Assembly (NCBI RefSeq): GCF_017115165.1
Contig: NZ_JABXKF010000090.1
Location: 1-64,000 of the forward strand
Reading direction: 5' to 3'
Length of the DNA: 64,000 nt
DNA from: Nostoc sp. LPT
GTDB taxonomy: Bacteria; Cyanobacteriota; Cyanobacteriia; Cyanobacteriales; Nostocaceae
Numbering within the stretch: position 1 is the stretch's first letter; every line of letters begins with the position of its first letter. A program made the translations under genes and the position numbers. The notes under the pieces are model-generated. The model was not told where the DNA came from. It saw nothing but the letters and a program-made list of their open reading frames with translations, and made no database searches. Shown here in pieces: positions 14,557 to 63,662 of this stretch.

Positions 14557-17500
14557 CTAGAGCTCAATATCTGCACGATTAGCCAAAAGCAGTTCTACCT
14601 CTTCCTCAGATAACTCTTCAATTTTTTCCAACAGAAGTTGCTCAATCATTTCTGCCTGTTTGACTGGTATCATTGCTTCCAATAAAAGGTCGCGCAGTGG
14701 TAGCTCTACAGGAAATCTTCCTCGCAATCGAGAAACTAGTTGAGTTGCAATGAGGGAGTCTCCTCCTAACTCATAGAAGTTGTCGTAAATACCAATTTCT
14801 GCAATTCCAAGTACCTCTTGCCATATTTCCGTAATTTGTTTTTCCAACTCATTTGTCGAAGCAACATAGGAATTACTAAGGTTAGGTCTGGAGTAGCGCG
14901 AGGATGAGTCTATTTGAGAAGAAGATTTTGAATCTGGTAGAGAGTCGAGGTCAAATGTGCGCTCGCACCTAGCTTTGAGATCTACTGTCGAAACAACAAC
15001 CTGAGTTCCTTTATCTAGAGAAAATATTCGTTTAAATACTTCTACAATTTCTACTGGAGTAATGGCTAATTCCACCCCAGATACTTGTTCCAGTGCTTTT
15101 TGTTCTTGGGTCGTATTGATCTGTAATTTGTCCCAATTTAGAGTGTACCACGGTAAAGAATGAGTTCGGTTGTGTCGGTTAGTAAAGGTATCTATGAAAT
15201 GATTCGCTGCTGAATATAAACCTAACCCAAATCCTCCTAAAATGGAAGACAAAGAAGAAAAAACGACACAAAAATCTAATTTTATATTCTGTAAGATTTG
15301 TTCTAATAGAGTAATCTGATCATGTTGGGAGTAAAATAGGTTTTCCAATTCTATATTACCAATTTCTGGAATCGAACTAAATATATTTTCACGCTTGATT
15401 CCAGTCGAATAGATAACCCCATGAATTTGACCAATATTCTCAGGTGCAAGACTGTGGTGGATTTGTTCATAATTAGTTATATCTGAACGCACCACCAAAA
15501 CTTTTGCACCTAATTCCTCTAATGCTAGTAATTTTTGGATTTTGCAACTCACTTCATCTTCTGGAGTGTGAGCTTCGAGCCATTGCGAGAAATCATCCTT
15601 TTCTGGAAAATCTAAATCCTCGATAAATATGAGTTGTGCTTGTAGAGATTTTGCTAAATATTCTGCAAGCACAACTTCAATACTTTCTAATCCACTAGGA
15701 AACAGGTAAACACCCTGTTTTCTTAACGGTGTTTTTTCTTCAACTACTGACTCTAAGCAAACTGGTTCAAATGTTTGTACCCAACGGTAGAAATCACGAT
15801 AAGCAACAATCAAGTCTGAGGATAGAGCCATGAACTCGCTTAAAAGTTGGTCAATAATATTACTGTTATAATTTCCCTCTCTATCCTCAGATCCTTGGCG
15901 ATTTGTTAAGGCAACATCAATACACCGACAGGTAATATTAGGATATTCTTGAGGAATAACTTTACATAAACCTAATATTGTTGCTTTTTCTGGGTCTAGT
16001 TTTTCATTACCATTGACCTCTTGAATGTTGTTCGATATAACCCAAAGTTGTAAGCGATTTTCCGTAAGAGTGCGATCGCTATTTTTGAGTTTACTAAGGC
16101 TCTGCGTTAAAAACAGCAGACTGTTGAATTCTAAATATTTTCTAGATTGACGATTTTCTGGTTTGTTGATGCTCCATAAATAAGCAATATTTTGGGGAAG
16201 TTTACCGAATAAAATTAATTTTTGAAACAAAGCATCATAGTCTTCGCATCTATATGGATTAATTGTATATACACCATCACTTAGTTTACTAAACTGCTCT
16301 CCCTGCTTAACCGTAATGATATTTTTACCTTGATTGCTCAACGCATTAATTAATTTTTCACCAACTCCCAAGTCATCAATAAAAAATAGCCACTCGTTTT
16401 GTGTAGATTCTATTTGAGCAGAGGATGAATTAGGCAGCAAAGAGCGTTTCCATGAAGGGACATAAAACCAGTTGGCAATATCTTGTTTATTATCTAATTT
16501 TACTGACTTACTATTTAAAGAAGGCGATGGGGGTTTAGCATCAATCCAGTATCTTTGTCGCTCAAAAGGATAGGTAGGCAAAGGTAAACGATGACGCTGC
16601 TCGTGAGTATAAAATCCTGACCAGTCAATCTCGACACCAGAAAGCCACAACCGACCTAATGTCTGCAACAAAAAGTTAACATCAGATTGTTGATCTTGAA
16701 CATGGCGTAATGAAGTTAATACCTGTTGTTTAGCATTTTTATCTAAATGCTGTGTCGTAATCGTGCTTAAAGTTCGTCCCGGTCCCACCTCCAGAAAAAC
16801 ACCTTCAAACTGCTTTAACAGTAGAGATATTCCATCTGAAAATCTCACAGTTTGTCGCAAATGTTGACACCAATAATCGGGATTTGTGGCTTGTGCATCT
16901 GTAATCCAAGTACCAGTGACATTGGAAATAAAGCGAATGCGTGGTGGATTCAGTTTGACTTTTTTTACAGCCTCAATAAATGCTTCTAGTATTGGTTCCA
17001 TCATTTGTGAATGAAACGCATGAGATGTATGCAACAGCCGACATTCAATTTCTTCAGAGGATAATTGATTTTGTAGTGTAGCAACTGCCTCGTTTGTACC
17101 AGACACTACGCAGGAAGATGAACTGTTAATTGCTGCTATTTCGAGAGAATTTTTATACAACGTCTCTGATTCCAACAGCGATCGCACTTCTTTTTCTGCA
17201 AGCCTGATTGCCAGCATACTTCCTGTGGGTACTTGTTGCATTAACTCTCCCCTTTTTGCCACAATCAATAGGGCATCTTCTAGGGAAAATACACCTGCAA
17301 CAGTCGCGGCGACATATTCCCCGATGCTGTGACCGATCATCGCTTCTGGTTGTACTCTCCATGACATCAATAACTGAGCTAGGGCGTACTCTGTAACAAA
17401 TAACGCGCTTTGGGTGAGGGCTGTTTGTTGTAGTTGCTTTGCAGCAGTTTCGGTATCTTGTTCACTGGGGTAAAGTAGGGAGCGGATATCAAGACCGAGG

Positions 17501-19212
17501 TGGGGTTGCAAAATCAGAGCGCAAGTATCTACATGTTTTTTAAACGTCGGTTCTACTTCATATAGTTCCCGACCCATGTTTGCATATTGTGACCCTTGTC
17601 CTGAAAACATGAAGATGACTGGCTGTTCTCTATGCTCCTGATATGCACTAAAAACCCGTTGTTGGTCTTGTGTTTCCAGAGCAATTACAGCATCTTTAAT
17701 GTTCTGGCACACCAACATTTTGCGATGGTTAAAAGCTCTACGACCCACTTGTAGAGTATGAGCCACATTAGCTAGATTTATATCTGGATATTGTTTGAAA
17801 TAATCAACCAGATTTGTAGCCGCAGTTTCAACCGCAGAAGTAGTTTTAGCTGATAATAAGAGTAACTGCCAAGGTCTAGAGCCATCAAAATATTTAATTT
17901 CAGGAGCTTCTTCCAGAATTATATGGGCATTAGTTCCACCAAAACCTAAGGAACTAATTCCTGCTCGGCGGGGAGTATTATTAGCTTTCCACTCGGTAAG
18001 TTTCGTATTGACGTAGAAGGGACTATTTGCAAAATCAATTTCAGGATTGGGAGCTTCAAAATTTAAGCTAGGAGGTATTTGTTTATATTTCAATGCTAAA
18101 ACGGTTTTGATAAGACTCGCTACACCAGATGCTATATCTAGATGTCCGATGTTTGGTTTTACTGAACCGATGGCGCAGAAGCTATTTCTTTGTGTAAAAG
18201 CACGAAAAGCCTTGGTGAGCGCAGCAACTTCGACTGGGTCACCAGTTGCTGTTCCAGTTCCATGAGTCTCTATATAAGAAATATCATCAGCATTAATTCC
18301 AGAATTTGCCAGAGCCTCTACAACAACTTCAGCCTGACCATTTACACTAGGTGCTGTATAGCTAACTTTTAAGGAACCGTCATTATTGATTGCTGAACCT
18401 TTAATAACTGCATGAATATAATCTTTATCTGCAATAGCATCTTTTAATCTTTTTAAGATAACTATTCCAAGTCCACTGCCAAAAATAGTACCCTGTGCTT
18501 TAGCATCGAAAGCTCGACAATGACCATCAGGCGACAAAATTCCGTCTTCTTGATAGAAGTAACCTGACTTTTGTGGAACTACAATCGTCACCCCACCTGC
18601 TAAAGCAATATCACACTCTTCATCAAGTAGACTTTTGCAGGCTAAATGTACAGCAACTAATGAAGTAGAACAATAAGTTTGGATACCTACACTTGGGCCT
18701 TTTAAATTTAATTTATACGAAATATTTGTGGACAAAAAATCTTTATTCAGAGTATAGTTAGTAGAAATATTTATTAAATTAACGTTTTCATATATATTGT
18801 GAAAAAAGTAACTATTTGTACTTACACCAGCGTAAACCCCAATCAAACCTTTATAAGTTTCTGGATCATATCCAGCGTTTTCAAGAGCTGACCAGGCACA
18901 TTCCATGAAGAGGCGATTTTGGGGGTCCATTACTTCAGATTCTCTAGGGCTGCAACCAAAGAACCTAGCATCAAAATACTCAATATCTTCTAGTACAGGT
19001 GCTGCTTTAACATAATTGGGGTTGTTTATAACTTCCTCTTCCAGATTTAAATCTACTAAGTCATGATTGGAGAAAAATGAAATAGACTCAACACCATTTT
19101 GAAGATTATGCCAAAAATCATCAAGGTTTTTGGCACCAGGGAACCGACCGGACATTCCCACTATTGCTATATCTAGATTTGCTGTTTGTTCTTGTTTTAT
19201 TTGGGTGCTCAT
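14557..19212 (-). CDS. Type I PKS module KS-AT-KR(inactive)-ACP
   Basis: A 1551-residue PKS. The KS starts near residue 14 (IVGMSGRFPGA), with the active Cys in QTYCSTSLVA and His in ETHGTGT and NIGHLD. The AT has GQGSQ, GHSIGEY and HAFHS, the last indicating malonyl-CoA. The KR region keeps Ser and Tyr/Asn (SSLSSILGG, YSAANHF), but the NADPH loop, GGLGGIG in its sister gene, reads SGLESIE, so reduction should fail and a beta-keto group remain. The ACP (NFYELGGDSL) is near the C-terminus, followed by an acidic helix. There is no DH or ER. It is co-directional with the sister PKS at 19248, 35 nt away, and 234 bp of the AT is identical to that gene. Confidence 0.94.
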   Translation of the reverse strand: MSTQIKQEQTANLDIAIVGMSGRFPGAKNLDDFWHNLQNGVESISFFSNHDLVDLNLEEEVINNPNYVKAAPVLEDIEYFDARFFGCSPRESEVMDPQNRLFMECAWSALENAGYDPETYKGLIGVYAGVSTNSYFFHNIYENVNLINISTNYTLNKDFLSTNISYKLNLKGPSVGIQTYCSTSLVAVHLACKSLLDEECDIALAGGVTIVVPQKSGYFYQEDGILSPDGHCRAFDAKAQGTIFGSGLGIVILKRLKDAIADKDYIHAVIKGSAINNDGSLKVSYTAPSVNGQAEVVVEALANSGINADDISYIETHGTGTATGDPVEVAALTKAFRAFTQRNSFCAIGSVKPNIGHLDIASGVASLIKTVLALKYKQIPPSLNFEAPNPEIDFANSPFYVNTKLTEWKANNTPRRAGISSLGFGGTNAHIILEEAPEIKYFDGSRPWQLLLLSAKTTSAVETAATNLVDYFKQYPDINLANVAHTLQVGRRAFNHRKMLVCQNIKDAVIALETQDQQRVFSAYQEHREQPVIFMFSGQGSQYANMGRELYEVEPTFKKHVDTCALILQPHLGLDIRSLLYPSEQDTETAAKQLQQTALTQSALFVTEYALAQLLMSWRVQPEAMIGHSIGEYVAATVAGVFSLEDALLIVAKRGELMQQVPTGSMLAIRLAEKEVRSLLESETLYKNSLEIAAINSSSSCVVSGTNEAVATLQNQLSSEEIECRLLHTSHAFHSQMMEPILEAFIEAVKKVKLNPPRIRFISNVTGTWITDAQATNPDYWCQHLRQTVRFSDGISLLLKQFEGVFLEVGPGRTLSTITTQHLDKNAKQQVLTSLRHVQDQQSDVNFLLQTLGRLWLSGVEIDWSGFYTHEQRHRLPLPTYPFERQRYWIDAKPPSPSLNSKSVKLDNKQDIANWFYVPSWKRSLLPNSSSAQIESTQNEWLFFIDDLGVGEKLINALSNQGKNIITVKQGEQFSKLSDGVYTINPYRCEDYDALFQKLILFGKLPQNIAYLWSINKPENRQSRKYLEFNSLLFLTQSLSKLKNSDRTLTENRLQLWVISNNIQEVNGNEKLDPEKATILGLCKVIPQEYPNITCRCIDVALTNRQGSEDREGNYNSNIIDQLLSEFMALSSDLIVAYRDFYRWVQTFEPVCLESVVEEKTPLRKQGVYLFPSGLESIEVVLAEYLAKSLQAQLIFIEDLDFPEKDDFSQWLEAHTPEDEVSCKIQKLLALEELGAKVLVVRSDITNYEQIHHSLAPENIGQIHGVIYSTGIKRENIFSSIPEIGNIELENLFYSQHDQITLLEQILQNIKLDFCVVFSSLSSILGGFGLGLYSAANHFIDTFTNRHNRTHSLPWYTLNWDKLQINTTQEQKALEQVSGVELAITPVEIVEVFKRIFSLDKGTQVVVSTVDLKARCERTFDLDSLPDSKSSSQIDSSSRYSRPNLSNSYVASTNELEKQITEIWQEVLGIAEIGIYDNFYELGGDSLIATQLVSRLRGRFPVELPLRDLLLEAMIPVKQAEMIEQLLLEKIEELSEEEVELLLANRADIEL
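17383..17616 (-). repeat. 234-bp AT segment identical to 22074-22307 (copy A)
   Basis: A base-by-base comparison shows no mismatch over 234 bp with the sister PKS AT domain. The flanks diverge at once to ordinary paralogue levels. This is consistent with recent gene conversion. Confidence 0.9.
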
Positions 19213-19247
19213 AATTTACTGAACCAGATAAATTAAATTAACATTTT

Positions 19248-22200
19248 TTAGTTACTTTGCATTTTTATCTGCCTTCTTCTCTGTCCTCGGCTTAGTCTTT
19301 GTTCAAAAGTATTTTCCTGGGGTTCTTCAGGACTAAAAGTCTTTGCCATAGAGCCGATGTTCGGACATTCATAAAGTTTGGCAACAGAAATCTTTGAATT
19401 AAATTCCTTATTTAAGGTTGCAATAACTTGAATCCCTATAAGAGAATCACCACCAACTTCAAAGAAGTTATCATAGATTCCTATCAGTTCAATTCCCAGA
19501 AGATTTTGCCAGATATTGGCAATCTTTTGCTCAATTTCATTTCGAGGAGCAACATAATCATTACTTAGTTCAGGTCGGGGATATTTGGAGTACGATGGAT
19601 TGACAGTCTCTAAAAATTCTAGGACTTGTGTTTCGTTGTAAGAATTGTACTGTTTGAGTGTATCCAAGAAGTCAGAGGTAGATACTACAATTTGAGGTAT
19701 TGTGCTTCCTAAAATGCGTAGAAAAGCATCTATACCTTCATTAGGCAATATACCTTGTTGAAGATTTTCTATTCGCAATTGTTGGAGTCGTTGGGGCAAC
19801 TCTGTGTTCGCCGCCATCCCAACTTCTTGCCAAGCATCCCAGTTGATACTTGTAGTAAATCTGCCCTTTTTGGAAGCATTACAATGAGCAAAGGCATCAA
19901 GAAAAGAATTTGCTCCACAATAGTCTACCTGTCCAAATTCCCCTAAAATTGAGCTTTTTGATGATGCTAGAATCAAGAAATCTAACTGAATGTCTTTGAC
20001 AATTGTATCAATAACTATTGTCCCCTTGACTTTGGGAGCCAGAATACTTTCTGCTTCTGCTTGAGTTTTTCGCTGAATTATACCGCCTCCAGAAACTCCA
20101 GCAGCGTGAATAACACCATTGAGTTGACCAAACTGCTGTTGAGCTTGAGCAATAGCACTTCGCATTTGTTCTATGTTGCTCACATCAGCACTCATCATCA
20201 AAACTTCTGCACCTAAGTCTTCGAGTTCTTGAACTTTGCGAATTTTGCAGCTAGTGCTATCAGTCTCATCATGAGTAGTGAGCCATTTTTCCCACTCATC
20301 TTTTTTTGGCAAACCAGAACGTCCTATCAACACTAGTTTTGCTTGTACACTTCGAGCTAAGTGTTCTGCCAAAACAAGTCCGATACCTCCGAGTCCACCT
20401 GTAATTAAATAAACTCCTTTTTCTCTTAGTCGAGGCTTTTCGATTTTAGCTTGATCAAAGCGCACTGGTTCAAAAGTTTGCACCCAACGATTCAAACCTC
20501 GATAAGCAATTAGCTTTTGGGAATCAGAAACCGTTAGTTCTGCCAGTATTTTTTCTACAAGTGTTTCTTCTTGCCAACTGCCTTCGGGGGGTAGGACAAC
20601 ATCAATACTACGACAATTAATATTTGAATATTCTTGGGAAATAACTTTAATTGGTCCGAGCAAAGTGGCTTTCTCTGGACAAAGTATTTCAGTTCCAGTC
20701 ACTGAGTGTAGGTCGTTAGAAATAACTGTGATTTGTACTTCATCAGTAGTTTCTTGTCTTCCCAAAGCTTGGGCAAGAAATAGGAGACTGTAAAATCCTG
20801 TTGTTTGAGCTTTATCAACTTGCTCAATTGCTAATTCTTGGTCACTACTACGTGTGACACTCCATAAATGAACAATCGTTTTTGGGAACTTATTTTGTTT
20901 AAAAAGCTCCTGGATTAAAAGATCGTAATCATGATTATTTTCCGGATTAATAGTATATTGAGACTTATTTAGTAGGGTAAAGTTTTCCCCAACTTTTACA
21001 GTAATTACATCCTGATTTTGTGTTTCTAATTGTTTGACTAACTTGCTACCCAAGCCACACTCATCGATAAACACCAAAGTGCAGAATTTTTGAGTTGCTA
21101 ATTCTTGATGTCCGATTTGTACAGGGGGTAAAGAAGGTTTCCAAAAAGGAATATAAAACCAGTCAGCTATATCAGGTTTTTTAGCCAGTGATGCTGGAGT
21201 GTGACGATCGCCTTGTCCTTGCTTGTTGGGTTCAATCCAGTACTTTTGTCGTTCAAAGGGGTAAGTCGGCAAAGGTAGACGATGACGCTGCTCGTGGGTA
21301 TAAAATCCCGACCAATCTATTTCTACACCAGAAAGCCACAACCGACCTAATGTCTGTAATAAAAAGCTAACATCCGATTGTTGGTCTTTAACATGACTTA
21401 ATGAACTTAGTACTTGTTGTTTGGTATTTTTATCTAAATGCTGTGTTGTTAATGTACTTAGTGTCCGCCCCGGTCCCACCTCCAAAAAAACGCCTTCAAA
21501 CTGCCCTAACAGTTGCGAGATCCCATCTGAAAACCTCACAGTTTCTCGTAAATGTTGACTCCAGTAGTTAGGATTTATGGCTTGCTCATCCGTAATCCAA
21601 CTACCAGTTACATTAGAAATAAAGCGTATGCGTGGTGGATTCAGTTTGACTGTTTTGATAGCCTGAATAAATGCTTCTAGTATTGGTTCCATCATTTGGG
21701 AATGGAACGCATGAGATGTATGCAACAGTTGACATTCAACTTGTTGAGAGGATAATTGATTTTTTAGTATAGCAACTGCCTCGTCTGTTCCAGAAACAAC
21801 ACAGGACGATGGGCTGTTAATAACTGCAATTTGTAGATATTTTTTATACAACATCTGTGCAGACACCAGCAACTGCACATCTTTTTCTGGAAGCCTAATT
21901 GCCAGCATACTTCCTCTGGGTACTTGTTGCATTAACTGTCCCCTTTTTGCCACAATGAATAAGGCATCTTCTAGGGAAAATACATTTGCGATCACAGCTG
22001 CGACATATTCCCCAATACTATGACCAATCATTGCTTCTGGATGTATCCCCCATGACATCAATAACTGAGCTAAGGCGTACTCTGTAACAAATAACGCGCT
22101 TTGGGTGAGGGCTGTTTGTTGTAGTTGCTTTGCAGCAGTTTCGGTATCTTGTTCACTGGGGTAAAGTAGGGAGCGGATATCAAGACCGAGGTGGGGTTGC

Positions 22201-23927
22201 AAAATCAGAGCGCAAGTATCTACATGTTTTTTAAACGTCGGTTCTACTTCATATAGTTCCCGACCCATGTTTGCATATTGTGACCCTTGTCCTGAAAACA
22301 TGAAGATAACTGGACAGTGACCTAGCTCATAGTAGTGACTAAAAATGCGTTGTGGGTCTTTGCTATTAAGCGATTTCACGGTATCATCTAGGTCTTGGCA
22401 AACTACCATGCGGCGATAGTCAAAAGCTCGACGACCTACTTGTAGGGTGTAAGAGACATCTGGTAGGGGAATATCGGGGTTTTGCTCTAAATAATCACGC
22501 AGTTGTGCTGTTGCAGTGTCTAAAGCCGTGCTGGTTTTGCCTGAGAGCAGTAACAATTGCCAAGGACGCGAGGGACTCGAAGCTTCAATCACTGGAGCTT
22601 CTTGCAAAATAACATGGGCATTAGTCCCACCAATGGCTAAAGAACTTACACCTGCTCTGCGTGGTGTTCCGTTGGTTTCCCACTCTGATAATTTGGTGTT
22701 GACATAAAAGGGACTATTGGCAAAGTCTATCTGTGGATTTGGCTCCTGAAAGTGCAAACTAGGAGGTATTTGTTTATGTTTTAGTGCAAGGACTGTTTTA
22801 ATGAATCCTGTCACACCTGCTGCTATATTCAAATGCCCGACATTGGTCTTTACTGAACCAATAGCACAAAAGCCTTTTTTATTTGTGCTGGCACCAAAAG
22901 CTTGTGTGAGAGCTTTGATTTCAATCGGATCTCCCAAAATGGTTCCTGTACCGTGTGCTTCTACATAAGTAACAGTCTCAGGTTCGACTTCAGCTAAGGC
23001 TAAAGCTTCTAAAATTACATCCCTTTGACCCTCAATACTAGGGGCTGTATATCCAATCTTTAAAGAACCATCGTTATTAACAGCTGAACCCTTGATTACT
23101 GCATGGATAAAGTCACCATCAGCAATGGCATCCTCTAATCTTTTCAAGACAACTATACCTAAACCATTACCACCATTAGTTCCTTTAGATTTTGCGTCAA
23201 AAGCTCGACAATGACCGTCAGGAGAATGAATTCCTCCTTGTTGATAGTGATAACCTATTTTTTGTACCGTTGTAGTAGAAACACCGCCTGCTAAAGCAAT
23301 ATCACTTTCACCATTTAGTAAACTTTGGCAAGCTATGTGGATAGCAACTAATGATGTGGAACAAGCAGTTTGAATATTGATACTTGGTCCTCTCAAGTTC
23401 AATTTGTAAGAAATTTGTGTGGGCAAGAAATCCTTTTCGTTTCTATGCAAAATTTGATAGCTGTCTACTGATTCCATCAAATCTCGATTGGAATATAAGT
23501 TTAAAAGTAGGTACATATTTGGAGATGCACCAGCGAAAAGACTTATTTGACCGCTATAAGTTTCAGAGTTGTAGCCAGCATTTTCTAAAGCTTCCCAAAC
23601 ACATTCCATGAAAAGGCGGTGTTGTGGATCTGTAATTTCAGCTTCTCTAGGTGAAAAGCCAAAAAATGAAGCGTCGAATAACTCTATATCTTCTAATACA
23701 CCGCTTGCCTTCACGTAATTGGGATCGTTGAGTAATGATGGATCTACCCCAGCAGATATTAGTTCCTCATCCGTGAAAAAAGAAATTGACTCTACACCAT
23801 CCCGCAGGTTTTGCCAAAAAATATCAATGTTTTTTGAACCAGGAAAACGCCCTGCCATACCGATAACAGCTATTTCATCTTCGCCAATTAAGTTCTCAGA
23901 TTGATTTAATTTATTCATTTCCATCAT
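19248..23927 (-). CDS. Type I PKS module KS-AT-KR-ACP
   Basis: A 1559-residue PKS. The KS has QTACSTSLVAIH, EAHGTGT and NVGHLN (about 15-445). The AT has GQGSQ, GHSIGEY and HAFHS, so malonyl-CoA is predicted (about 560-860). The KR has an intact GGLGGIG cofactor loop, LIGRSGLP, Ser in SSKSSILG and YCGANSF (Tyr and Asn), so it should give a beta-hydroxyl. The ACP is DNFFEVGGDSL. The C-terminus ends in a basic tail (SRGQRRRQIKMQ) like those on other proteins of the cluster, possibly a docking element. Three near-successive Met codons occur at the start. The chain passes to the next PKS gene downstream, whose KR is dead. Confidence 0.95.
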   Translation of the reverse strand: MMEMNKLNQSENLIGEDEIAVIGMAGRFPGSKNIDIFWQNLRDGVESISFFTDEELISAGVDPSLLNDPNYVKASGVLEDIELFDASFFGFSPREAEITDPQHRLFMECVWEALENAGYNSETYSGQISLFAGASPNMYLLLNLYSNRDLMESVDSYQILHRNEKDFLPTQISYKLNLRGPSINIQTACSTSLVAIHIACQSLLNGESDIALAGGVSTTTVQKIGYHYQQGGIHSPDGHCRAFDAKSKGTNGGNGLGIVVLKRLEDAIADGDFIHAVIKGSAVNNDGSLKIGYTAPSIEGQRDVILEALALAEVEPETVTYVEAHGTGTILGDPIEIKALTQAFGASTNKKGFCAIGSVKTNVGHLNIAAGVTGFIKTVLALKHKQIPPSLHFQEPNPQIDFANSPFYVNTKLSEWETNGTPRRAGVSSLAIGGTNAHVILQEAPVIEASSPSRPWQLLLLSGKTSTALDTATAQLRDYLEQNPDIPLPDVSYTLQVGRRAFDYRRMVVCQDLDDTVKSLNSKDPQRIFSHYYELGHCPVIFMFSGQGSQYANMGRELYEVEPTFKKHVDTCALILQPHLGLDIRSLLYPSEQDTETAAKQLQQTALTQSALFVTEYALAQLLMSWGIHPEAMIGHSIGEYVAAVIANVFSLEDALFIVAKRGQLMQQVPRGSMLAIRLPEKDVQLLVSAQMLYKKYLQIAVINSPSSCVVSGTDEAVAILKNQLSSQQVECQLLHTSHAFHSQMMEPILEAFIQAIKTVKLNPPRIRFISNVTGSWITDEQAINPNYWSQHLRETVRFSDGISQLLGQFEGVFLEVGPGRTLSTLTTQHLDKNTKQQVLSSLSHVKDQQSDVSFLLQTLGRLWLSGVEIDWSGFYTHEQRHRLPLPTYPFERQKYWIEPNKQGQGDRHTPASLAKKPDIADWFYIPFWKPSLPPVQIGHQELATQKFCTLVFIDECGLGSKLVKQLETQNQDVITVKVGENFTLLNKSQYTINPENNHDYDLLIQELFKQNKFPKTIVHLWSVTRSSDQELAIEQVDKAQTTGFYSLLFLAQALGRQETTDEVQITVISNDLHSVTGTEILCPEKATLLGPIKVISQEYSNINCRSIDVVLPPEGSWQEETLVEKILAELTVSDSQKLIAYRGLNRWVQTFEPVRFDQAKIEKPRLREKGVYLITGGLGGIGLVLAEHLARSVQAKLVLIGRSGLPKKDEWEKWLTTHDETDSTSCKIRKVQELEDLGAEVLMMSADVSNIEQMRSAIAQAQQQFGQLNGVIHAAGVSGGGIIQRKTQAEAESILAPKVKGTIVIDTIVKDIQLDFLILASSKSSILGEFGQVDYCGANSFLDAFAHCNASKKGRFTTSINWDAWQEVGMAANTELPQRLQQLRIENLQQGILPNEGIDAFLRILGSTIPQIVVSTSDFLDTLKQYNSYNETQVLEFLETVNPSYSKYPRPELSNDYVAPRNEIEQKIANIWQNLLGIELIGIYDNFFEVGGDSLIGIQVIATLNKEFNSKISVAKLYECPNIGSMAKTFSPEEPQENTFEQRLSRGQRRRQIKMQSN
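22074..22307 (-). repeat. 234-bp AT segment identical to 17383-17616 (copy B)
   Basis: Second copy of the identical tract, offset by 4691 bp. It covers the AT N-terminal region from the GQGSQ motif to the LAQLL helix. Confidence 0.9.
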
Positions 23928-24066: not shown

Positions 24067-25707
24067 TTAAATTGATATTTTTGCAGCCATTTGGATTTGG
24101 TCATTTAAAACCGCTTTAATATCTTCTTCTGTCGTTAACGGATTAGCAATCACTGCACGCATAGCAATTATAGGAATTCCACTGCCAAAAAGGATATCTT
24201 TTTTTGTCGTTCGGGAAATAAAAGTATGACCAATTTGACGCTGATTTTTTTGTAAGCATTCATTAAATCTATTGATAATTTGATTATCTATCTCTGTCAA
24301 TTTATTTTTAGCACGCGCCTCTCTAAATTGTTTTGGAATATAGCGATAAGTTAACAAATTCGTATCAGGTTCTGCCAGCAATTCAAATTCAGGCATAGCC
24401 GAAATACAAGCAGCCATGTATTGAGTTTTTCGGATTCCTTCATTAATCAAAAACTCATATCCCTTAACTCCAATTAGCTTTAAACCCGCGTGTAAAAATA
24501 AAGCCATGCCTGGTCGAGAACCTTCTAAAGCGCGTTTACCTAAATCAAACGATCCCTTACGCATGGTATAACTAGCGTGTTTTTCGATCGCCCCAGGCAG
24601 ATATGGATCACGGAAAAAGACCATACCAATGCCCATTGGTAGATATAGTTGTTTATGTCCATCAATAGTGACTGAATCAGCTTTTTCTATACCAGCAATC
24701 TTATGCCGATATTGCTCAGAAAAAATCAGCGGACCACCCCAAGCAGCATCTACGTGAAAATGAGCATTAGCTTCCTGTGCAATTTCTGCAATATCTGTAA
24801 GGGAATCAACTCCACCAGAGTCTGTTGTACCAGCAACTCCCACAATTGCAATAATTAGCAAGTTTTTGGCACGACAATTTGCAACAGTTTGGCGCAGTGC
24901 TTCTATATCAACTCGATTATTACAGTCAGCAGGGATTCTGATCAAACTATGCGTACCAATGCCCATTAAATCCGCAGCTTTATCAAAAGAGAAATGCATC
25001 AAGTCAGAGCCAATAATCACTGCTCCTTTATAGCCATAGAAATCTAGAGCAGCTGCTAAACCTTCTTTTTCTACACCAAGAAATCCATCTTTCGGTCCTA
25101 GTAAAGCATTTCGCGCACACCAAACTGCTGTGATATTTGCCACTGTTCCACCAGAAACCAAGATTCCAAGTGTACTCAAATTGTTTTGAATATGTTGAGT
25201 ATAAAAACCATCAGAGAAACTATAAATTTGTCGATGCAACATAGCCAAAGCTTCACGTTCGCAAAAGCTTAGGGCTTTAGCTGTCTCTATTTTGACGGCA
25301 TTTTGGTTCATCGCCGTCATTAGTTTAGCCAAAGGGCGTACAAAACTAGGAAGTGCCGAGGTCATGTGACCTATAAATCGTGGCGAAGATGTATGTATTG
25401 AATGAGCAACAACATTGTTGCCTATGTATTTGAGATAGTTCTCAAAATTAGTCGGCTGAAGAGGAATTTTACTATCAGAAAATTTTTCTAATAGTGACTC
25501 TAAATCAATGTTGGTATTAGAATCACTTGTGCTTAAAAAATCTTGCGATAAGCTATCAGTTATTTCATCGATTCGTTTCTCTATAGAGTTTGCTTGATTG
25601 CATGAAGCAAACAATTGCATTACTTGTTCTTCTATCTCATTATCTAATGTTTGCTCAGATTCCAAAAAAGAATTTTTGTTTAGCATTTCTTGTTTGCTTG
25701 ATGTCAT
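24067..25707 (-). CDS. PLP-dependent group II decarboxylase, probable aspartate 1-decarboxylase (PanP-like)
   Basis: A 546-residue fold-type I PLP decarboxylase. Motifs are HVDAAWGGP (Asp to the pyridine N) and SVTIDGHKQLYLPMG, with the Schiff-base Lys in DGHKQ. The DGHKQ-Y-PMG form, rather than DPHKW, resembles PanP-type aspartate decarboxylases as I remember them, but glutamate or diaminobutyrate decarboxylation cannot be excluded. Its place inside the cluster, which has two A domains with beta-alanine-like pockets, supports a role in making beta-alanine or a close beta-amino acid as a dedicated building block. It lies between the Gly/monooxygenase NRPS and the PKS pair, all on the minus strand. 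Family membership is firm, substrate moderate. Confidence 0.88.
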   Translation of the reverse strand: MTSSKQEMLNKNSFLESEQTLDNEIEEQVMQLFASCNQANSIEKRIDEITDSLSQDFLSTSDSNTNIDLESLLEKFSDSKIPLQPTNFENYLKYIGNNVVAHSIHTSSPRFIGHMTSALPSFVRPLAKLMTAMNQNAVKIETAKALSFCEREALAMLHRQIYSFSDGFYTQHIQNNLSTLGILVSGGTVANITAVWCARNALLGPKDGFLGVEKEGLAAALDFYGYKGAVIIGSDLMHFSFDKAADLMGIGTHSLIRIPADCNNRVDIEALRQTVANCRAKNLLIIAIVGVAGTTDSGGVDSLTDIAEIAQEANAHFHVDAAWGGPLIFSEQYRHKIAGIEKADSVTIDGHKQLYLPMGIGMVFFRDPYLPGAIEKHASYTMRKGSFDLGKRALEGSRPGMALFLHAGLKLIGVKGYEFLINEGIRKTQYMAACISAMPEFELLAEPDTNLLTYRYIPKQFREARAKNKLTEIDNQIINRFNECLQKNQRQIGHTFISRTTKKDILFGSGIPIIAMRAVIANPLTTEEDIKAVLNDQIQMAAKISI

Positions 25708-25847: not shown

Positions 25848-28800
25848 TTACTGTGTTGCTGCTCGGCGCTCTTTCCTAACTTGTTTTCGCCTCTGTACTG
25901 AAGCTGTTCTGCTCTCCGAGTGATGAGCAGGTCGTAAAACAGATGTTTCTTCACTAGATTCCTGACTAAAATATTTAACCAGGTGACTGATAGTCGGATA
26001 TTGAAACATCTCAACCAAGCTGAAATCTCGCTGAAATACTTTTTGCAACTTGCTAGGAACTTGAATTAAGAGCAATGAATTACCACCAAGTTCAAAGAAA
26101 TTGTCATGGATTCCCACTCTTTCTACTTGAAGTAATTCTTGCCAAATAGATGCAATCACTTTTTCAACTTCGGTCTTCGGCGCCACATAGGATACCTCTA
26201 ATTCTGGTCTTGAAGCCTCTGGTGCAGGTAATGCACTGCGGTCTATTTTGCCGTTGGGTGTTAGAGGTAGGGCGTTCAGCGTTACAAAGCTTGAGGGTAC
26301 CATATACTCAGGTAATCTTTCTTTGATAAACGCTCGTAAGTCGCCGATCGAAAGGGTGGGTTTGTTTGCTATTATTTCGTCAGCCAGTAGGTGTGTTTTT
26401 TCTGTGGGTGTGACTTGTGTCCCTTCTGCTTGTTGTATCGGAACAACATAGGCTACTAGGCGTTTATCTCCTGGTTGCTCCTCTCGTGAGACAACTACAG
26501 CCTCCACTACTCCCGGATGTTGACTCAAGATAGTTTCTATCTCACTTAATTCGATCCGATATCCCTGGAATTTCACTTGATGATCTACACGACCCAGAAA
26601 CTCAATGTTACCGTTGGGTAGATATTGTGCCAAGTCTCCAGTTTTATACAGTTTGTTGTTTGGGTTTGTCCCAAAGGGATTGGAGATGAAACGCTCTATG
26701 GTTAACTGTGGTTGGTTTAAGTAGCCACGCACCACGCCTTCGCCACCAATGTAGAGTTCACCAGGAATACCAACAGGTACTGGTTGTAGATGGCGATCGA
26801 GAATATAAATTTCTGTGTTGGCAATGGGGCGTCCGATTGGTATCGTATTGCCGACTTCTTGCAGGGGATAGGTTGTAGACCAAATAGTCGTCTCGGTGGG
26901 GCCATACATGTTATAAATTTCTGCCGAGAGTTGAGTCCGCAACTGTTCTGCTAGAGAAACGGGTAACGCCTCACCACCAAGCATCAATTTGCGGAGTGAA
27001 CCCATCGCACTCAGCGCCTTATTATCCTGAATTAATATTCTTGCAAGAGACGGAGTGCATTGCAGATGTGTCACATTGTGCCTGGCAATTTGAGCAGGTA
27101 GGGAATAGTCAGTGTCATCTTTGTCTATTTTTTTGTTGCTCAATTCTCTGACTGTATTTAGGTGATGTAAACTAGACAACACCGATTCCACATCCACACC
27201 AAAATCGATCAGACATGCAACCTCATCCACCCCGATCGCCTTGAGTCGGTTAATCATCCGCAAACAAGTGCTGGGTGTGCCTAACAAACTGCTTCTTTCA
27301 AAGTACCGATTAAAGGCGTAATTCAGCAGTTGCTCTTGCTCTTGTGCAGTAAAATTCTCTGCATTAATATCGTGACCTAAGCTTTTTCCTAAGTTATTCA
27401 ACAGACTCAGAGAACTTTTCAAGTACTGGTAAAAAGGTTGCCGCACCTTTTCTCGCACAACATCAATGTCCTCACCCACGAAGGTGTGAATCATCAACGT
27501 CACGTGACCTGCTCCCAGTCCATGTCCGTGTTCCTGCCAGGATTGGCGATAAACCGCAATTTTTTCCTCTAGTTCCTCTACATTCTGATCGAGTAAATGG
27601 GTAAGCAAGTTGGCACCAATTTCACCCGCCCGACGAAAAGTTTCTGGACTACCAGCTGCTGTAACCCAAATCGGCACTTCCGGCTGAATCGGTTGGGGAT
27701 GAATCTTCACTTCTACTTCTTTGCCACTACCTCCTGGCAGAGTTATCGATTCTCCGCGCCAAAGTTGGCGGACAGTTTCGATGTCACGAAACATGATTTG
27801 GAAGCGATCGCTATACTTGTCTGGTGCTAGGACAAAATCATTGGCGTGCCAACCGGAAGCAAAGGAGATACCAACCCGGCCTCGCGAAAGGTTATCAACT
27901 ACAGACCATTCTTCAGCAACTCGGATCGGATTTTGTAAGGGTAAAACAATACTACCAGCACGAATTTGAATACGCTCTGTAATTGTGGCGATCGCTGCAC
28001 TGACAACGGAGGGATTTGGGTATAGACCGCCAAATTCATGGAAGTGTCGCTCTGGAGTCCAGATGGCTGCAAAGGCGTGTTTGTCGGCAAATTTAGCACC
28101 TTCAAGTAGTAAGTGATACTTATCTGTGCCTGCCTGTACCTCGTCACTAGCAAAATAGAAAAGGCTAAATGCCATTTCTTTATCTGTGATTTTTTGGTCT
28201 ACTTCAGTAGTAAAAGTAGTAGGTCTTGGATCACCATTAATCACAACTTGAAAACCGCGTGTCAGCGTCCACAACAACTCTAACACTGAGATATCAAAGG
28301 AAATGCTGGTAACTGCTAGCCAAGTACCTGGATGATCGTTTCCAATACTACCGTCCATTCCTGTAAAGAAATTGACAACGTTGCGATGACTGACCATCAC
28401 TCCCTTTGGTTTACCTGTGGAGCCGGAAGTGTAGATCGTATATGCTAAGTTGTCAGTTGACAAGGCTGTTGGGGGATTCTGATCACTAGCGCTTTGAATT
28501 ATCTGCCAATCTCTATTTAGGCAAACCACCGATGCGCCAGAATTTGGAAGTTTTTCCAGTAATTGTTGTTGAGTCAACAGCACTGGCACTTGAGCATCTG
28601 CCAACATAAAAGTTAGGCGTTCCTGCGGGTATGCTGGGTCTAGCGGTAGATATGCACCACCTGCTTTGAGGATGGCTAATAGTCCGACGATCATATCGAG
28701 CGATCGCTCTACACAAATCCCTACCAATACTTCTGATTTTACTCCCAGCGATCGCAAGTAATGCGCCAATTGGTTAGCTTTCGTGTTGAGTTCGCGGTAA

Positions 28801-30278
28801 GTTAACTGCTCATCTTTAAACACCACTGCGACTGCATTAGGTGTGCGTTCTACTTGCGCCTCAAATAATTGATGAATGCATTGTTCTTGAGGATACTCAA
28901 TTTCTGTATCATTCCACTCCCGCAGCAATTGAGATTTTTCTTGTCCAGTCAGTAACGACAAATCTCGAAGTTGTTGTTCAGGATTGGCAACTATACTTTC
29001 TAACAAAGTCTTTAAATGCCCTAATATCCGATTAATCGTCGCACTATCAAAACGACGGGTATCATACCCAATCGACAGTAATGAATCTGAACCAGGATAT
29101 ACCTGTAGGGTAAGAGGATAATTCGTCTTTTCAAATATCCGAGTTTCCCCTATTACCATGCTTTGAGCTAGCTTTTCTCCAGTATCATCTACTAAATAGT
29201 TATTAAAAACTAGAAGACTCTCAAATAGTGGCAACCCACGAGGAATTTGACTCCATTGTTGAATCTGTATTAGTGGACTATACTCATACTGACGCATTTC
29301 CACTTCTTGAATTTGCAGCTTTTTCAACCAAGGTATAAGCAAATCATCAGCAGGGACTTGTACCCGTAGCGGCAATGTGTTGGCGAAAAGTCCCATCATG
29401 GATTCTGCTTCTGCCAATTCAGTCGGTCGGCCTGAAGATGTGGCGCCAAAAACTATATCTGACTCACCGCTATATCGGCTTAAAAGTATAGCCCAGGCTC
29501 CCTTGAGTAGAATATTTAGGGTAAGATGATACTTTCGTGCCAGGGAATTCAAGGCATCTGTCGTTGTTACCGAAAGTCGGGTTTGTTGACAATCATGGTC
29601 TTCGTCTTCGCTAGAGAAAGTACCGACAGCTTTGTCCATCATTAGTGATGTCGGTATCGTAAATCCTTCAAGCATTTCGCGCCAGTAAATTTCAGCCTTT
29701 GATATATCTTGCTGCTGTAGCCAAGAAATGTATTCTTTAAAGGGACGAGGACTTTCTAAATGTAAATCTTCACCTTTGCAAAAGGCATTATAGAATTCAT
29801 AAAATTCTTTCCATAGCCATGTTAAAGACCACCCTTCCATCAATATATGGTTATAGCTGAAGACAAATTGATAAGCGTTATCAGCCACCTGAATTAATGC
29901 CAAACGCATCAGTGGAACTTGGGAAAGTGTAAAGCCTCGTTTGCGATCTGCTGCTAAAAAAATTTCTAACTGCTTTTCTTGTTCCGGCAAAGAAAGTTCG
30001 CGCCAGTCTTGAAAATCCCAAGGCAAGTCTACTTGTCGATATACCACTTGATATGGCTTATCAAGATTTTCCCAGTAGAAGGAGGTACGCAAAATTGGAT
30101 GCCGATCTAAAACTTGCTGCCATGCTTTTTGGAAAGCTGGAACATCAACTTGAGTTTGTAAGGCGTAGCAAAACTGCTCAAAGTACATCCCCGAATTAGG
30201 TGTAACCAGCGTGTGAAAAAGCATACCCTGCTGTAAGGGTGAAAGTTCGTATATATCTTCAATATTATTTTGGTTCAT
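25848..30278 (-). CDS. NRPS C-A(Gly, with inserted luciferase-like monooxygenase)-PCP
   Basis: A 1476-residue NRPS. The C domain (about 5-440) is of the DCL type that follows epimerization domains (ELSPLQQGMLFHTL). Its motif is NHILMEG, so the first His is Asn and Asp is Glu, with the catalytic second His kept. The A domain is split: A1-A4 (TIYTSGSTGKPKG, FDISVLELL) to about 690, then an FMN-dependent luciferase-like monooxygenase (about 700-1040, FSLFYFASDEVQ, IWTPERHFHEFGG, SFASGWHANDFV), then A5-A10. The pocket reads D-I-L-Q-M-G-M-I-W-K, close to the glycine code DILQLGLIWK. The PCP is DNFFELGGNSL. The preceding PKS ends 17 nt upstream, with AGGAG in the gap. A comparable Gly A-domain with integrated monooxygenase exists in myxothiazol/melithiazol synthetases. 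Confidence 0.94.
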   Translation of the reverse strand: MNQNNIEDIYELSPLQQGMLFHTLVTPNSGMYFEQFCYALQTQVDVPAFQKAWQQVLDRHPILRTSFYWENLDKPYQVVYRQVDLPWDFQDWRELSLPEQEKQLEIFLAADRKRGFTLSQVPLMRLALIQVADNAYQFVFSYNHILMEGWSLTWLWKEFYEFYNAFCKGEDLHLESPRPFKEYISWLQQQDISKAEIYWREMLEGFTIPTSLMMDKAVGTFSSEDEDHDCQQTRLSVTTTDALNSLARKYHLTLNILLKGAWAILLSRYSGESDIVFGATSSGRPTELAEAESMMGLFANTLPLRVQVPADDLLIPWLKKLQIQEVEMRQYEYSPLIQIQQWSQIPRGLPLFESLLVFNNYLVDDTGEKLAQSMVIGETRIFEKTNYPLTLQVYPGSDSLLSIGYDTRRFDSATINRILGHLKTLLESIVANPEQQLRDLSLLTGQEKSQLLREWNDTEIEYPQEQCIHQLFEAQVERTPNAVAVVFKDEQLTYRELNTKANQLAHYLRSLGVKSEVLVGICVERSLDMIVGLLAILKAGGAYLPLDPAYPQERLTFMLADAQVPVLLTQQQLLEKLPNSGASVVCLNRDWQIIQSASDQNPPTALSTDNLAYTIYTSGSTGKPKGVMVSHRNVVNFFTGMDGSIGNDHPGTWLAVTSISFDISVLELLWTLTRGFQVVINGDPRPTTFTTEVDQKITDKEMAFSLFYFASDEVQAGTDKYHLLLEGAKFADKHAFAAIWTPERHFHEFGGLYPNPSVVSAAIATITERIQIRAGSIVLPLQNPIRVAEEWSVVDNLSRGRVGISFASGWHANDFVLAPDKYSDRFQIMFRDIETVRQLWRGESITLPGGSGKEVEVKIHPQPIQPEVPIWVTAAGSPETFRRAGEIGANLLTHLLDQNVEELEEKIAVYRQSWQEHGHGLGAGHVTLMIHTFVGEDIDVVREKVRQPFYQYLKSSLSLLNNLGKSLGHDINAENFTAQEQEQLLNYAFNRYFERSSLLGTPSTCLRMINRLKAIGVDEVACLIDFGVDVESVLSSLHHLNTVRELSNKKIDKDDTDYSLPAQIARHNVTHLQCTPSLARILIQDNKALSAMGSLRKLMLGGEALPVSLAEQLRTQLSAEIYNMYGPTETTIWSTTYPLQEVGNTIPIGRPIANTEIYILDRHLQPVPVGIPGELYIGGEGVVRGYLNQPQLTIERFISNPFGTNPNNKLYKTGDLAQYLPNGNIEFLGRVDHQVKFQGYRIELSEIETILSQHPGVVEAVVVSREEQPGDKRLVAYVVPIQQAEGTQVTPTEKTHLLADEIIANKPTLSIGDLRAFIKERLPEYMVPSSFVTLNALPLTPNGKIDRSALPAPEASRPELEVSYVAPKTEVEKVIASIWQELLQVERVGIHDNFFELGGNSLLLIQVPSKLQKVFQRDFSLVEMFQYPTISHLVKYFSQESSEETSVLRPAHHSESRTASVQRRKQVRKERRAATQ

Positions 30279-30295: not shown

Positions 30296-33200
30296 TCACT
30301 GACCAATCTGAGCCAGCAAGTTACTCAAATTTTCTTGATTGATGTTTGCTGCCGAAAAGTCTGAAGGGGTATACTCTATTGCTTCTAGGGAGCGAGAATA
30401 GGTGATGAGAGATTTGAGGGCTTCGACAAAACTATGAGATAGTTTCTCTATAGTCTCGCGTCTATGCACATTTGTGCTGTAGCTAAATTCCAGTCTTAAC
30501 TGACCTTCTTCATTAACCCATGCGGTCACGCCTAGCAAATGAGAACTAGTTCCTTTTGGACTGTACATTGATCCAGTGGATTCTTCAGTCGGTCTGAGCA
30601 TAGAAGATTGATCAAAGCTTTTACCAAATTGACCAAGGTAGAGAAAAAATACCTCTGCTTGAGGAAGCGATCGCATTTTCTCTGTCAGTGTTGTATCCTC
30701 ACTAAGGTAGCGTAGCGCTCCATGATCAATGGTTCTACTAGAAATGCAACGAAACTGCTCTTTTACGGCTTTCAATGCCTCCCCTGGATTCTCAGCACCC
30801 TCTAAATCCAAAAGCACAGGATAAAGAGTAGTCAGCCAACCTACTGTCCGTGATATATCCACATTATCTATAGTTGTACTTGCATCTCGCGCATCTTCTT
30901 CGGTATTAAACAGTAAACATTTTATGCCTGTCCATTCTGTAAAAGCTTGTACAAGAGCAGTCAACAAAACTTCTTGTGTATTAGTTCGATAAACTGCTAG
31001 AACCTCCTGAAGTAATGCCTGAGTTTCTGTTTCGCTTAACGCTACTGAGACACTTTCACCTGATGCTACAGTGTTAATGCCTCCTGGATAATCGATTGGT
31101 AAGGGATAAACCTGTTCGTAACCTTTGCTGAGACAGGAATTTAGGTTTTTTTGCAACTCTACTGATTGAGCGTATTCCTTTAGTCGCTCAGACCACTGTT
31201 TGAAAGAGGTTGTTTTCTGCGGCAGTTGAATTGCTTTACCAAGTCTGAGCTGTTGATAAGTAGTCTGAAGATCCTCTATTAAGATTCGCCAAGAACCAAA
31301 ATCTACTGCCAAGTGGTGGATGATGATGAGCAAGCGGCTTGACTTATTGACACCCAAATCAAAAAGCACACCCCGCACAATTGGCCCATCTGATAAATTC
31401 AAACTAGCTTGTAGTTCCGTGGCGGTTGCTTCCATCAAAGATTTTTGAACATCAGGCGAAAACGCTGATAAATCTGTATGTGTAAGATTCACCTGTTTTT
31501 CTAAGTCAGTGCTCACCTGCTGCCAGCCATACTCAGAGGGGATAAACCGCAAGCGAAGTGCATCGTGATGTATAAATAAATGCTGCCATGCTTGTTCAAA
31601 CAAAGCCCGATCGAGAACTTGCATTACCTCTACAAAGAATGCCATGTTCCAGTGGTGTGGTTCTGATAAATTCTGTTCAAAGAACCAGTGCTGGATAGGT
31701 GTAAGAGGAAGCGAACCAGTTACTAAGCCTTGTTCAGCCTGGACAACTTGTTTTGTGGTGGTTACCTCTGCCAGTTCGGCGATTGTCTGATGCTCAAACA
31801 ATTGCTGAGGGGCAAGCCGATAACCTGCTTTAGCAGCTCTAGCACTGACTTGAATGCCAAGTACAGAATCTCCCCCTAACTCAAAAAAGTTATCGTCAAT
31901 ACCTACTTGCTCAATACCAAGGAGTTCTTGCCAGATATTGGCAATGGTTTGCTCTACCTCATTTCTAGGAGCAACATAGTCATTATCTAAATTAGGTCTT
32001 AAATAAAGTGAGGCGGAACTGGCTTTTTGTGCAACTTTAGAACCTTGACTAAATTCAAGTTGAATCCATCTTTTGATACTAACTTGTAAGTTTACTGTTG
32101 ATGTGACTAACTGACTAAATTTTCTCAAGGATAAGGCACGTTTAAAAACCTCCAGACCTTCTTGCTTTGTCATCATCGAATCTGCACCTTTGAGTGAGGT
32201 TACTGATTTTGAGGATTCTTGAGTAATCCAATCCCCATAATTGATACTCTGCCAGGAGAAAAGACTTGTTTGGTTATGTTTATGTACAAAAGCATCAGTA
32301 AATAGATGCGCTGCTGGATAAGCAGCCATGCCCATTACCCCTAAAACAGATGCTAATGACGATATTATTACGCAGAAATCTAGCTCTTTTCCTTGGAGGA
32401 TATTTTCTAATACAAATAATCCATAGCCTGTTGAGCTGAATTGACTTTCACACTCAGTTTTACTTATCTGTTGAATATTACTAAACAACTTTATCCCTGC
32501 TGCATGAATGACACCATCAATTTCACCAAAGCGGTTTGATGCTTGAGTCATTACTGCTTGCATTTGTTCGAGATTCGCAACATCGGCGCGGCAAATTAGA
32601 ACTTCACTACCCAATGTTTCTAATGCTTGCACTTTCTTGATTTTGCGACTGATATCATCGTTATCATCATGAATTGCTAGCCATTGCGACCAATCTTGTT
32701 TTGCAGGGAAACTGGAACGCAATGTCAGAATTAGCTTGGCGTGTGCTGTTTGGGCGAGATATTCTGCCAGCACTAAGCCAATATCTCCCAAACCACCAAC
32801 AATTAAGTAAACTCCTTCATCCCTGATGGGAATTGTTTCTTGATTTGGCTCTTCAATTTGTATTGGTTCAAAAGTTTGCACCCAACGATGTTTGCCACGG
32901 TAGGCAATCATATTCTCAGATGTTGTTTGAGTCAGTTCTGTTACGAGATGGTCTATGAGTTGACTGTTTTGGGATGTTATTGATTCAGGAATAACCACAT
33001 CAATGTTACGACAGGTGATGTTCGTATACTCTTGGGGAATCACTTTACAGATTCCCATGATAGTTGCCTTTTGCGGGCACAAGTTTTCGTCGCCGTTTAC
33101 CTCTTGCACATTGTTGGTAACAACTGAAATTTGGATAGTATCGGTAACTTCTTGTCTTCCCAACGCTTGTGCTAAGAAAAGTAGACTATAAAAACCATTA

Positions 33201-37584: not shown

Positions 37585-37602
37585 CGATTCCCTCCCCTTA
37601 CC

Positions 37603-37625
37603 AAGGGTAGGGCTAGGGTGGGGTC
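37603..37625. repeat. G-rich 23-bp repeat, copy 1
   Basis: AAGGGTAGGGCTAGGGTGGG plus GTC. It matches 37730-37752 at 20 of 23 positions. Such G/C-rich runs flank many intergenic regions in Nostocales. Confidence 0.5.
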
Positions 37626-37726
37626 GATTGACGCAACTGACGAATCGTCTCAGGGATCGCCTCCAATAACTCATCCAGTTGTTGATCCACCTGCTCATTC
37701 GTAAACCTCACTACACAAATTCCCTT
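37613..37726 (-). pseudogene. C-terminal remnant of a DUF559-like protein
   Basis: A 37-codon open stretch on the minus strand, in a different frame from the FecB ORF, reads GICVVRFTNEQVDQQLDELL followed by EAIPETIRQLRQSTPP and a TAG stop. This resembles the C-terminal beta-strand and helix of DUF559 (PD-(D/E)XK-like) proteins of cyanobacteria. No N-terminal part is present; the sequence is bracketed by two G-rich repeat copies. It probably arrived with the repeats. The identification is from memory of the family. Confidence 0.4.
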
Positions 37727-37729
37727 TGC

Positions 37730-37752
37730 AAGGGCAGGGCTGGGGAGGGGTC
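37730..37752. repeat. G-rich 23-bp repeat, copy 2
   Basis: AAGGGCAGGGCTGGGGAGGG plus GTC. It overlaps the stop codon of the TonB receptor and forms a direct repeat with 37603-37625. Confidence 0.5.
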
Positions 37753-53092: not shown

Positions 53093-53094
53093 TT

Positions 53095-56382: not shown

Positions 56383-56383
56383 C

Positions 56384-63655: not shown

Positions 63656-63662
63656 AATATTA

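What the first reader, a model, noticed from the sequence alone, without database searches (positions are those of the whole stretch)
24067..25707. Cluster-encoded decarboxylase matched to two beta-alanine-type A domains
A PanP-like PLP decarboxylase sits in the cluster, and two A domains (in 40594-47193 module 1 and 9290-13387) have pockets VDWVISLADK and VDWIISLANK, lacking Asp235. Together these suggest on-demand supply of beta-alanine, or a substituted analogue, used twice in the product. The second pocket differs at two positions and may take a variant.
Basis: partly seen in the sequence, partly recalled or inferred. Interest (0 to 1): 0.65.

Follow-up and report, generated by a model that had tools for sequence, protein, structure and literature searches.

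The report
Dedicated beta-alanine supply for peptide assembly
A cyanobacterial peptide-making gene cluster carries its own enzyme that very probably turns aspartate into beta-alanine for two loading stations of the assembly line; across bacteria such stations repeatedly sit beside one of two unrelated aspartate decarboxylases, which makes the substrate prediction unusually strong although still untested at the bench.

Summary
ORF 24067-25707 (minus strand) is a PanP-type PLP decarboxylase. The two A-domain pockets read VDWVISLADK and VDWIISLANK, as stated. In 386 cyanobacterial genomes, 14 carry this decarboxylase clade, and all 14 carry a VDW-type A domain in the same cluster (2 of the other 372 do). 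In 45 of 50 further named genomes the FVDSVWE motif lies within 18.8 kb of the decarboxylase gene. The two exceptions in the sample place a pyruvoyl-type aspartate decarboxylase (PanD) beside the A domain instead, so two unrelated aspartate decarboxylases pair with the same pocket. Some clusters have only the terminal 'LAN' pocket and others only the internal 'LAD' pocket, yet both have the decarboxylase, so one product most likely serves both. The genome has its own PanD and no glutamate mutase, so the cluster enzyme is a dedicated supplier and 3-methyl-aspartate is unlikely. Best reading: L-Asp to beta-alanine, used twice in a lipopeptide-polyketide, possibly a siderophore. The principle is known (destruxin DtxS4, pleosporacin PleC, cryptophycin CrpG). 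A PanP-type supplier conserved across cyanobacterial clusters is a new variant. No activity was measured.

The parts
24067..25707 (-). PanP-type PLP-dependent L-aspartate alpha-decarboxylase (proposed beta-alanine supplier), 546 aa
   Evidence: TIGR03799 616.5 bits vs cut-off 606.1; PF00282; PLP Lys352 in DGHKQ, His238, Asp320 and Tyr380 invariant across 23 relatives; fold matches group II PLP decarboxylases
44212..45624 (-). A domain 1 ('LAD' subtype), pocket VDWVISLADK, first module of ORF 40594-47211; proposed beta-alanine
   Evidence: pocket extraction; motif at 45043-45063; in the single VDW clade
10436..11884 (-). A domain 2 ('LAN' subtype), pocket VDWIISLANK, terminal C-A-T-TE module of ORF 9290-13387; proposed beta-alanine
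   Evidence: pocket extraction; Pfam boundaries; motif at 11297-11317; LAN subclade
40594..47211 (-). NRPS C-A(beta-Ala)-T-C-A(Ser-like DVWHISLVDK)-T
9290..13387 (-). Terminal NRPS C-A(beta-Ala)-T-TE
14557..23927 (-). Two PKS genes KS-AT-KR-T between decarboxylase and terminal module
25848..30278 (-). NRPS C-A-T with luciferase-like monooxygenase inserted in a Gly-like A domain, directly upstream of the decarboxylase
30296..36370 (-). PKS KS-AT-KR-T with C-terminal condensation-like domain
36577..40426 (-). Periplasmic binding protein and TonB-dependent receptor (metallophore uptake genes)
47186..60991 (-). PKS KS-AT-MT-KR-T; NRPS C-A(Thr)-T; NRPS C-A(Asp/Asn-like)-T-C of the same assembly line
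61073..63697 (-). C-TauD protein, probable Asp/Asn beta-hydroxylase

Best explanation
The gene encodes a PLP-dependent L-aspartate alpha-decarboxylase of the PanP family. It is dedicated to the surrounding NRPS-PKS assembly line and makes free beta-alanine. The two A domains whose binding Asp has moved from position 235 to 236 activate that beta-alanine, once internally and once in the terminal C-A-T-TE module, so the product contains two beta-alanine units. Shown: the sequences, family, pockets, gene linkage, and presence of a separate PanD in the genome. Inferred: the substrates and the product.
For: Family: PanP 616.5 bits, next family 153.6; PanP-family clade separate from Dab/Glu-type outgroup with 100% SH-aLRT. 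Linkage: 14/14 decarboxylase genomes have a VDW-type A domain in the same cluster, against 2/372 others; in 50 named genomes the motif is on the decarboxylase contig in 45, always within 18.8 kb. Substitution by an unrelated enzyme: the two VDW-type loci without PanP both have a PanD beside them, in G199 an extra PanD whose ORF starts 10 bp after the A-T gene and in G143 the sole PanD overlapping an NRPS gene 6.5 kb away. Independent pairs: in Verminephrobacter and Cupriavidus a PanP-like gene follows an NRPS with FVDSLWE. Dedicated copy: PanD present elsewhere in this genome; Vibrio genomes hold a vitamin-type PanP (959-974 bits) plus a diverged NRPS-linked copy (429-449 bits). Both pockets: LAN-only clusters (G352, G167, G300) and LAD-only clusters (G203, G197, G185, G099) all carry the enzyme.
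Against: No activity was measured for any member. The match to the PanP model is borderline: a 91% identical neighbour scores 605.7, just below the cut-off. The protein is only about 44% identical to vitamin-type PanP of Vibrio. The reading of the pocket as beta-alanine rests on established Stachelhaus-type assignments known to me, not on a structure or a paper found here. Relatives are not independent observations, so the p value overstates the evidence.
Confidence: 0.86

Rival explanations
1. The decarboxylase makes a substituted beta-amino acid (beta-aminoisobutyrate from 3-methyl-Asp, as CrpG does for cryptophycin, or isoserine from 3-hydroxy-Asp), and one or both pockets are tuned to it.
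For: CrpG prefers 3-methyl-Asp by 3-4 orders of magnitude (PMC7459860). The LAN pocket differs from LAD at two positions. The cluster holds a TauD hydroxylase.
Against: No glutamate mutase E subunit in the genome. The same pocket type pairs with ordinary PanD in G199 and G143. The TauD domain is fused to an NRPS-type C domain, which suggests carrier-bound Asp as its substrate. Clusters with only LAN pockets still use the same enzyme.
Confidence: 0.08
2. The A domain loads aspartate through its side-chain carboxylate and the decarboxylase acts on the carrier-bound unit, like VinO in vicenistatin biosynthesis.
For: PLP decarboxylases in macrolactam clusters work this way (own knowledge, not tested here). 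The gene is always next to the assembly line.
Against: The pocket has no basic residue besides Lys517 to hold an alpha-carboxylate. The same pocket type pairs with PanD, a small-molecule enzyme.
Confidence: 0.03
3. The enzyme decarboxylates Dab, Glu or an aromatic amino acid to give an amine, and its proximity to the A domains is coincidental.
For: Dab decarboxylases occur in siderophore clusters (RhbB; own knowledge). Sequence and fold searches find Dab/Lys/Glu decarboxylases among the nearest solved structures. Many related Nostocales clusters have a DIWEM[TVS]ADD A domain that may take Dab.
Against: Dab model 153.6 bits vs PanP 616.5. No PanP-named structure appeared among the matches, so structural nearness says little. 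The window cluster has no DIWEM A domain, and linkage follows the VDW pocket.
Confidence: 0.03

Closest known systems
PanP (TIGR03799), vitamin-type PLP aspartate 1-decarboxylase of Vibrio
   Same: Same family and fold type; borderline above the equivalog cut-off
   Different: About 44% identity; not needed for pantothenate here, since PanD is present; embedded in an NRPS-PKS cluster
DtxS4 (destruxin) and PleC (pleosporacin), fungal NRPS-cluster aspartate decarboxylases
   Same: Cluster-encoded aspartate decarboxylase supplying beta-alanine to an NRPS (PMC12177691)
   Different: Fungal, and not compared by sequence here; pleAB alone still gave product, so that enzyme boosts supply rather than being essential
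CrpG (cryptophycin, Nostoc)
   Same: Cyanobacterial cluster-encoded alpha-decarboxylase giving a beta-amino acid for an NRPS
   Different: Resembles pyruvoyl-dependent PanD and prefers 3-methyl-Asp (PMC7459860)
Kasumigamide MakasB-A1 (Microcystis)
   Same: Cyanobacterial A domain assayed as beta-Ala selective (PMC5061366)
   Different: Pocket letters not available here; no decarboxylase mentioned in the main text
Cyanochelins (cyanobacterial beta-hydroxyaspartate siderophores)
   Same: FAAL start, hybrid PKS/NRPS, Asp beta-hydroxylase (PMC12628792); LAD-only relatives resemble these
   Different: Cyanochelin B contains no beta-alanine

Membership tests
PanP, PLP aspartate 1-decarboxylase (TIGR03799) | Score above the curated cut-off of 606.1 bits | tested here: met
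   616.5 bits, but borderline: 91% identical L118 scores 605.7
PanP, PLP aspartate 1-decarboxylase (TIGR03799) | Groups with vitamin-type PanP apart from Dab/Glu-type decarboxylases | tested here: met
   PanP-family branch 100% SH-aLRT, Vibrio PanP inside it
PanP, PLP aspartate 1-decarboxylase (TIGR03799) | PLP lysine and catalytic-loop tyrosine | tested here: met
   Lys352 and Tyr380 invariant in 23 sequences; Tyr380 aligns with the Tyr mutated in 4rj0/4riz (numbering offset inferred)
PanP, PLP aspartate 1-decarboxylase (TIGR03799) | Decarboxylates L-Asp | not testable with these tools
   needs enzyme assay or panD complementation
beta-alanine-activating A domain | Asp moved from 235 to 236 (VDW-type pocket) | tested here: met
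   clade support 1.0
beta-alanine-activating A domain | ATP-PPi exchange with beta-alanine | not testable with these tools
   needs an enzyme assay
Cyanochelin-type beta-OH-Asp siderophore cluster | Asp A domain with dedicated beta-hydroxylase and uptake genes | tested here: inconclusive
   TauD, TonB receptor and PBP present, but the A pocket DLTHIGEVCK resembles Asn as much as Asp
L-2,4-diaminobutyrate decarboxylase (NF052646) | Score above cut-off of 900 bits | tested here: not met
   153.6 bits

The most novel reading that the evidence does not exclude
PanP-family enzymes and NRPS beta-alanine modules have long travelled together, and the vitamin enzyme of Vibrio may itself descend from a secondary-metabolism supplier: in the tree vitamin-type PanP falls with NRPS-linked lineages of cyanobacteria and Firmicutes, with NRPS-linked proteobacterial copies outside (SH-aLRT 96).
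Probability: 0.2. Interest if true: 0.6.

Novelty: new variant of a known kind. Interest (0 to 1): 0.47.

Why it matters
It gives genome miners a physical rule: an aspartate decarboxylase beside an NRPS predicts a beta-alanine module, and a VDW-type pocket predicts a nearby decarboxylase. It points to a large group of uncharacterised cyanobacterial clusters (dozens of Nostocales and Oscillatoriales species) whose products should contain beta-alanine. Some of these look like beta-hydroxyaspartate siderophores, a class of molecule in which a beta-alanine linker is rare (PMC12305651). It also offers paired enzyme sets for assembly-line engineering.

Tried and rejected
Searching papers for the literal pocket VDWVISLADK or VDWVISL gave nothing, so the beta-alanine assignment of the code rests on knowledge plus comparative evidence. 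The glutamate-mutase route to 3-methyl-Asp was tested and not found. A housekeeping role was rejected for this genome: PanD is present. A Microcystis-like genus scan for the assayed kasumigamide A domain found none in 12 genomes. The motif hit at G172:C62 lies in no recognisable A domain and was treated as chance. A phmmer search with a 30-residue A-domain piece was uninformative. AlphaFold gave a usable fold (pLDDT 80.9) but low confidence exactly in the catalytic loop 375-397, so no pocket modelling of Asp was attempted. Vibrio pockets (VDWYYTLDI and similar) come from weak alignments and are not relied on.

Full report
CHECK OF THE OBSERVATION. The window is bases 1-64000 of an 85,149-base contig in an 8.6 Mb cyanobacterial genome. 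ORF 24067-25707 is intact on the minus strand. It is a PF00282 PLP decarboxylase, and its best NCBIfam match is PanP, TIGR03799, at 616.5 bits against a cut-off of 606.1; the next family scores 153.6. The two pockets were re-extracted with PheA numbering and are exactly those reported. The other pockets of the cluster read Ser-like DVWHISLVDK, Thr-like DFWNIGMVHK, Asp/Asn-like DLTHIGEVCK, and Gly-like DIL-Q-MGMIWK for the A domain interrupted by a monooxygenase (substrate names from established code assignments known to me).

ANATOMY. Transcription runs from high to low coordinates. Outside the window lie a FAAL-T-C-A-MT-T starter, a cupin hydroxylase, a PKS, a carbamoyltransferase and FkbH-type extender genes. 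Inside follow C-TauD, C-A-T-C, C-A(Thr)-T, PKS with methyltransferase, C-A(beta-Ala)-T-C-A(Ser)-T, TonB receptor, periplasmic binding protein, PKS-C, C-A(Mox)-T, the decarboxylase, two PKS modules, a methyltransferase, C-A(beta-Ala)-T-TE and tailoring genes including two P450s and a MATE exporter.

LINKAGE TEST. In 386 cyanobacterial genomes the protein has 15 genes at 60% identity or more, window included, in 14 genomes; apart from a partial piece of one of them at a contig end (G099), every other match is at 37% or less. All are inside NRPS-PKS clusters, with a VDW-type A domain in the same cluster. A strict DNA motif for FVDSVWE was searched separately in the same sample. It hits 16 genomes: all 14 with the decarboxylase and 2 of 372 without (p about 8e-24, which ignores relatedness). 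In 50 named genomes, 47 have the motif, 45 on the same contig as the decarboxylase, all within 18.8 kb, median 10.1 kb. Those 50 were chosen because they hold the decarboxylase, and some may be the same species as genomes in the first sample.

THE EXCEPTIONS SUPPORT THE RULE. The two motif genomes without this decarboxylase each place a PanD beside the A domain. In G199 an extra PanD copy (the genome has two) has an ORF that begins 10 bp after an A-T gene with pocket VDWITSL. In G143 the sole PanD overlaps the start of an NRPS gene, 6.5 kb from the VDWVISLAD module. PanD and PanP are unrelated enzymes (pyruvoyl and PLP), so the shared element is the reaction, aspartate to beta-alanine. Both PanD copies keep the Gly-Ser cleavage site.

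BOTH POCKETS. The 38 cyanobacterial VDW-type A domains form one clade with support 1.0; the terminal LAN domains are a subclade with support 1.0 nested in the LAD type. Three clusters with wide flanks have only LAN (G352, G167, G300) and four have only LAD (G203, G197, G185, G099); all have the decarboxylase. The simplest reading is one product serving both.

FAMILY HISTORY. In the tree the cyanobacterial enzymes join PanP relatives with 100% SH-aLRT, apart from Dab/Glu-type enzymes (quick method, several long branches flagged). Three Vibrio-group genomes hold a vitamin-type PanP (959-974 bits) and a diverged second copy (429-449 bits) inside an NRPS cluster. That the high-scoring copy is the vitamin enzyme is inferred from its score and from the absence of PanD in those genomes. 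Verminephrobacter and Cupriavidus have a PanP-like gene after an NRPS with the motif FVDSLWE. Pelistega and Planctomyces copies are not NRPS-linked in the stretches read.

MECHANISM. Lys352 (Schiff base), His238, Asp320 and the loop Tyr380 are invariant in 23 relatives, as expected of an active group II decarboxylase; the fold search agrees. Proposed path: cytosolic L-Asp is decarboxylated to beta-alanine, which is adenylated by the A domains, whose Asp236 would bind the more distant amino group. These steps are inferred. Product titre may depend on the enzyme without strictly requiring it, as seen with pleosporacin, where pleAB without pleC still gave product (PMC12177691).

COMPARISON AND NOVELTY. 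Cluster-encoded supply of beta-amino acids is known: DtxS4 and PleC in fungi and CrpG in cyanobacteria, a PanD-like enzyme preferring 3-methyl-Asp (PMC7459860). A cyanobacterial beta-Ala A domain has been assayed in kasumigamide (PMC5061366). I found no paper in the library on PanP-type suppliers in NRPS clusters, but most subscription papers are not held, including the first cyanochelin paper. I therefore call this a new variant of a known kind.

Noticed in passing
G199:C1:391312-397102 (L101:6313-12103): Compact operon-like row: PLP decarboxylase (MfnA-like), MATE-like transporter, A-T-(about 230 aa) protein with pocket VDWITSL, and an extra PanD. Looks like an Ebony-style beta-alanyl-amine pathway with its own beta-alanine supply.
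   Followed up: partly
G143:C3:1916360-1933459 (L098-L099): NRPS with VDWVISLAD divergent from an NRPS gene whose start overlaps the genome's only PanD.
   Followed up: partly
25848-30278: Luciferase-like monooxygenase inserted inside a Gly-like A domain; its C domain lacks a strict HHxxxDG motif.
   Followed up: no
30296-36370 and 56384-60991: C-terminal extra condensation-like domains followed by another C domain in the next gene (tandem C pairs). No strict HHxxxDG motif in the C domains of 30296-36370 and 25848-30278, nor in the first C domain of 56384-60991.
   Followed up: no
36577-40426 and 61073-63697: TonB receptor, periplasmic binding protein and C-TauD hydroxylase suggest a metallophore, though the matching A pocket is Asn-like.
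   Followed up: partly
G000:C10:63698-69519 (L003): FkbH-type HAD, acyl-CoA dehydrogenase, ACP, 3-hydroxyacyl-CoA dehydrogenase and carbamoyltransferase: likely methoxy- or hydroxymalonyl-ACP extender and carbamoylation.
   Followed up: no
Related loci such as L144-L164 and G300, G352: Recurrent A domain with pocket DIWEM[TVS]ADD, often beside a cupin gene, in related Nostocales clusters; absent from the window cluster.
   Followed up: no
G129, G336, G172, G203, G099, G185: No PanD by PF02261; the general beta-alanine source of these cyanobacteria is unclear, so there the cluster enzyme might also feed coenzyme A.
   Followed up: no
5877-6416: TauD-like ORF of 179 aa covers only about the first half of the family profile; probably a truncated gene.
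   Followed up: no
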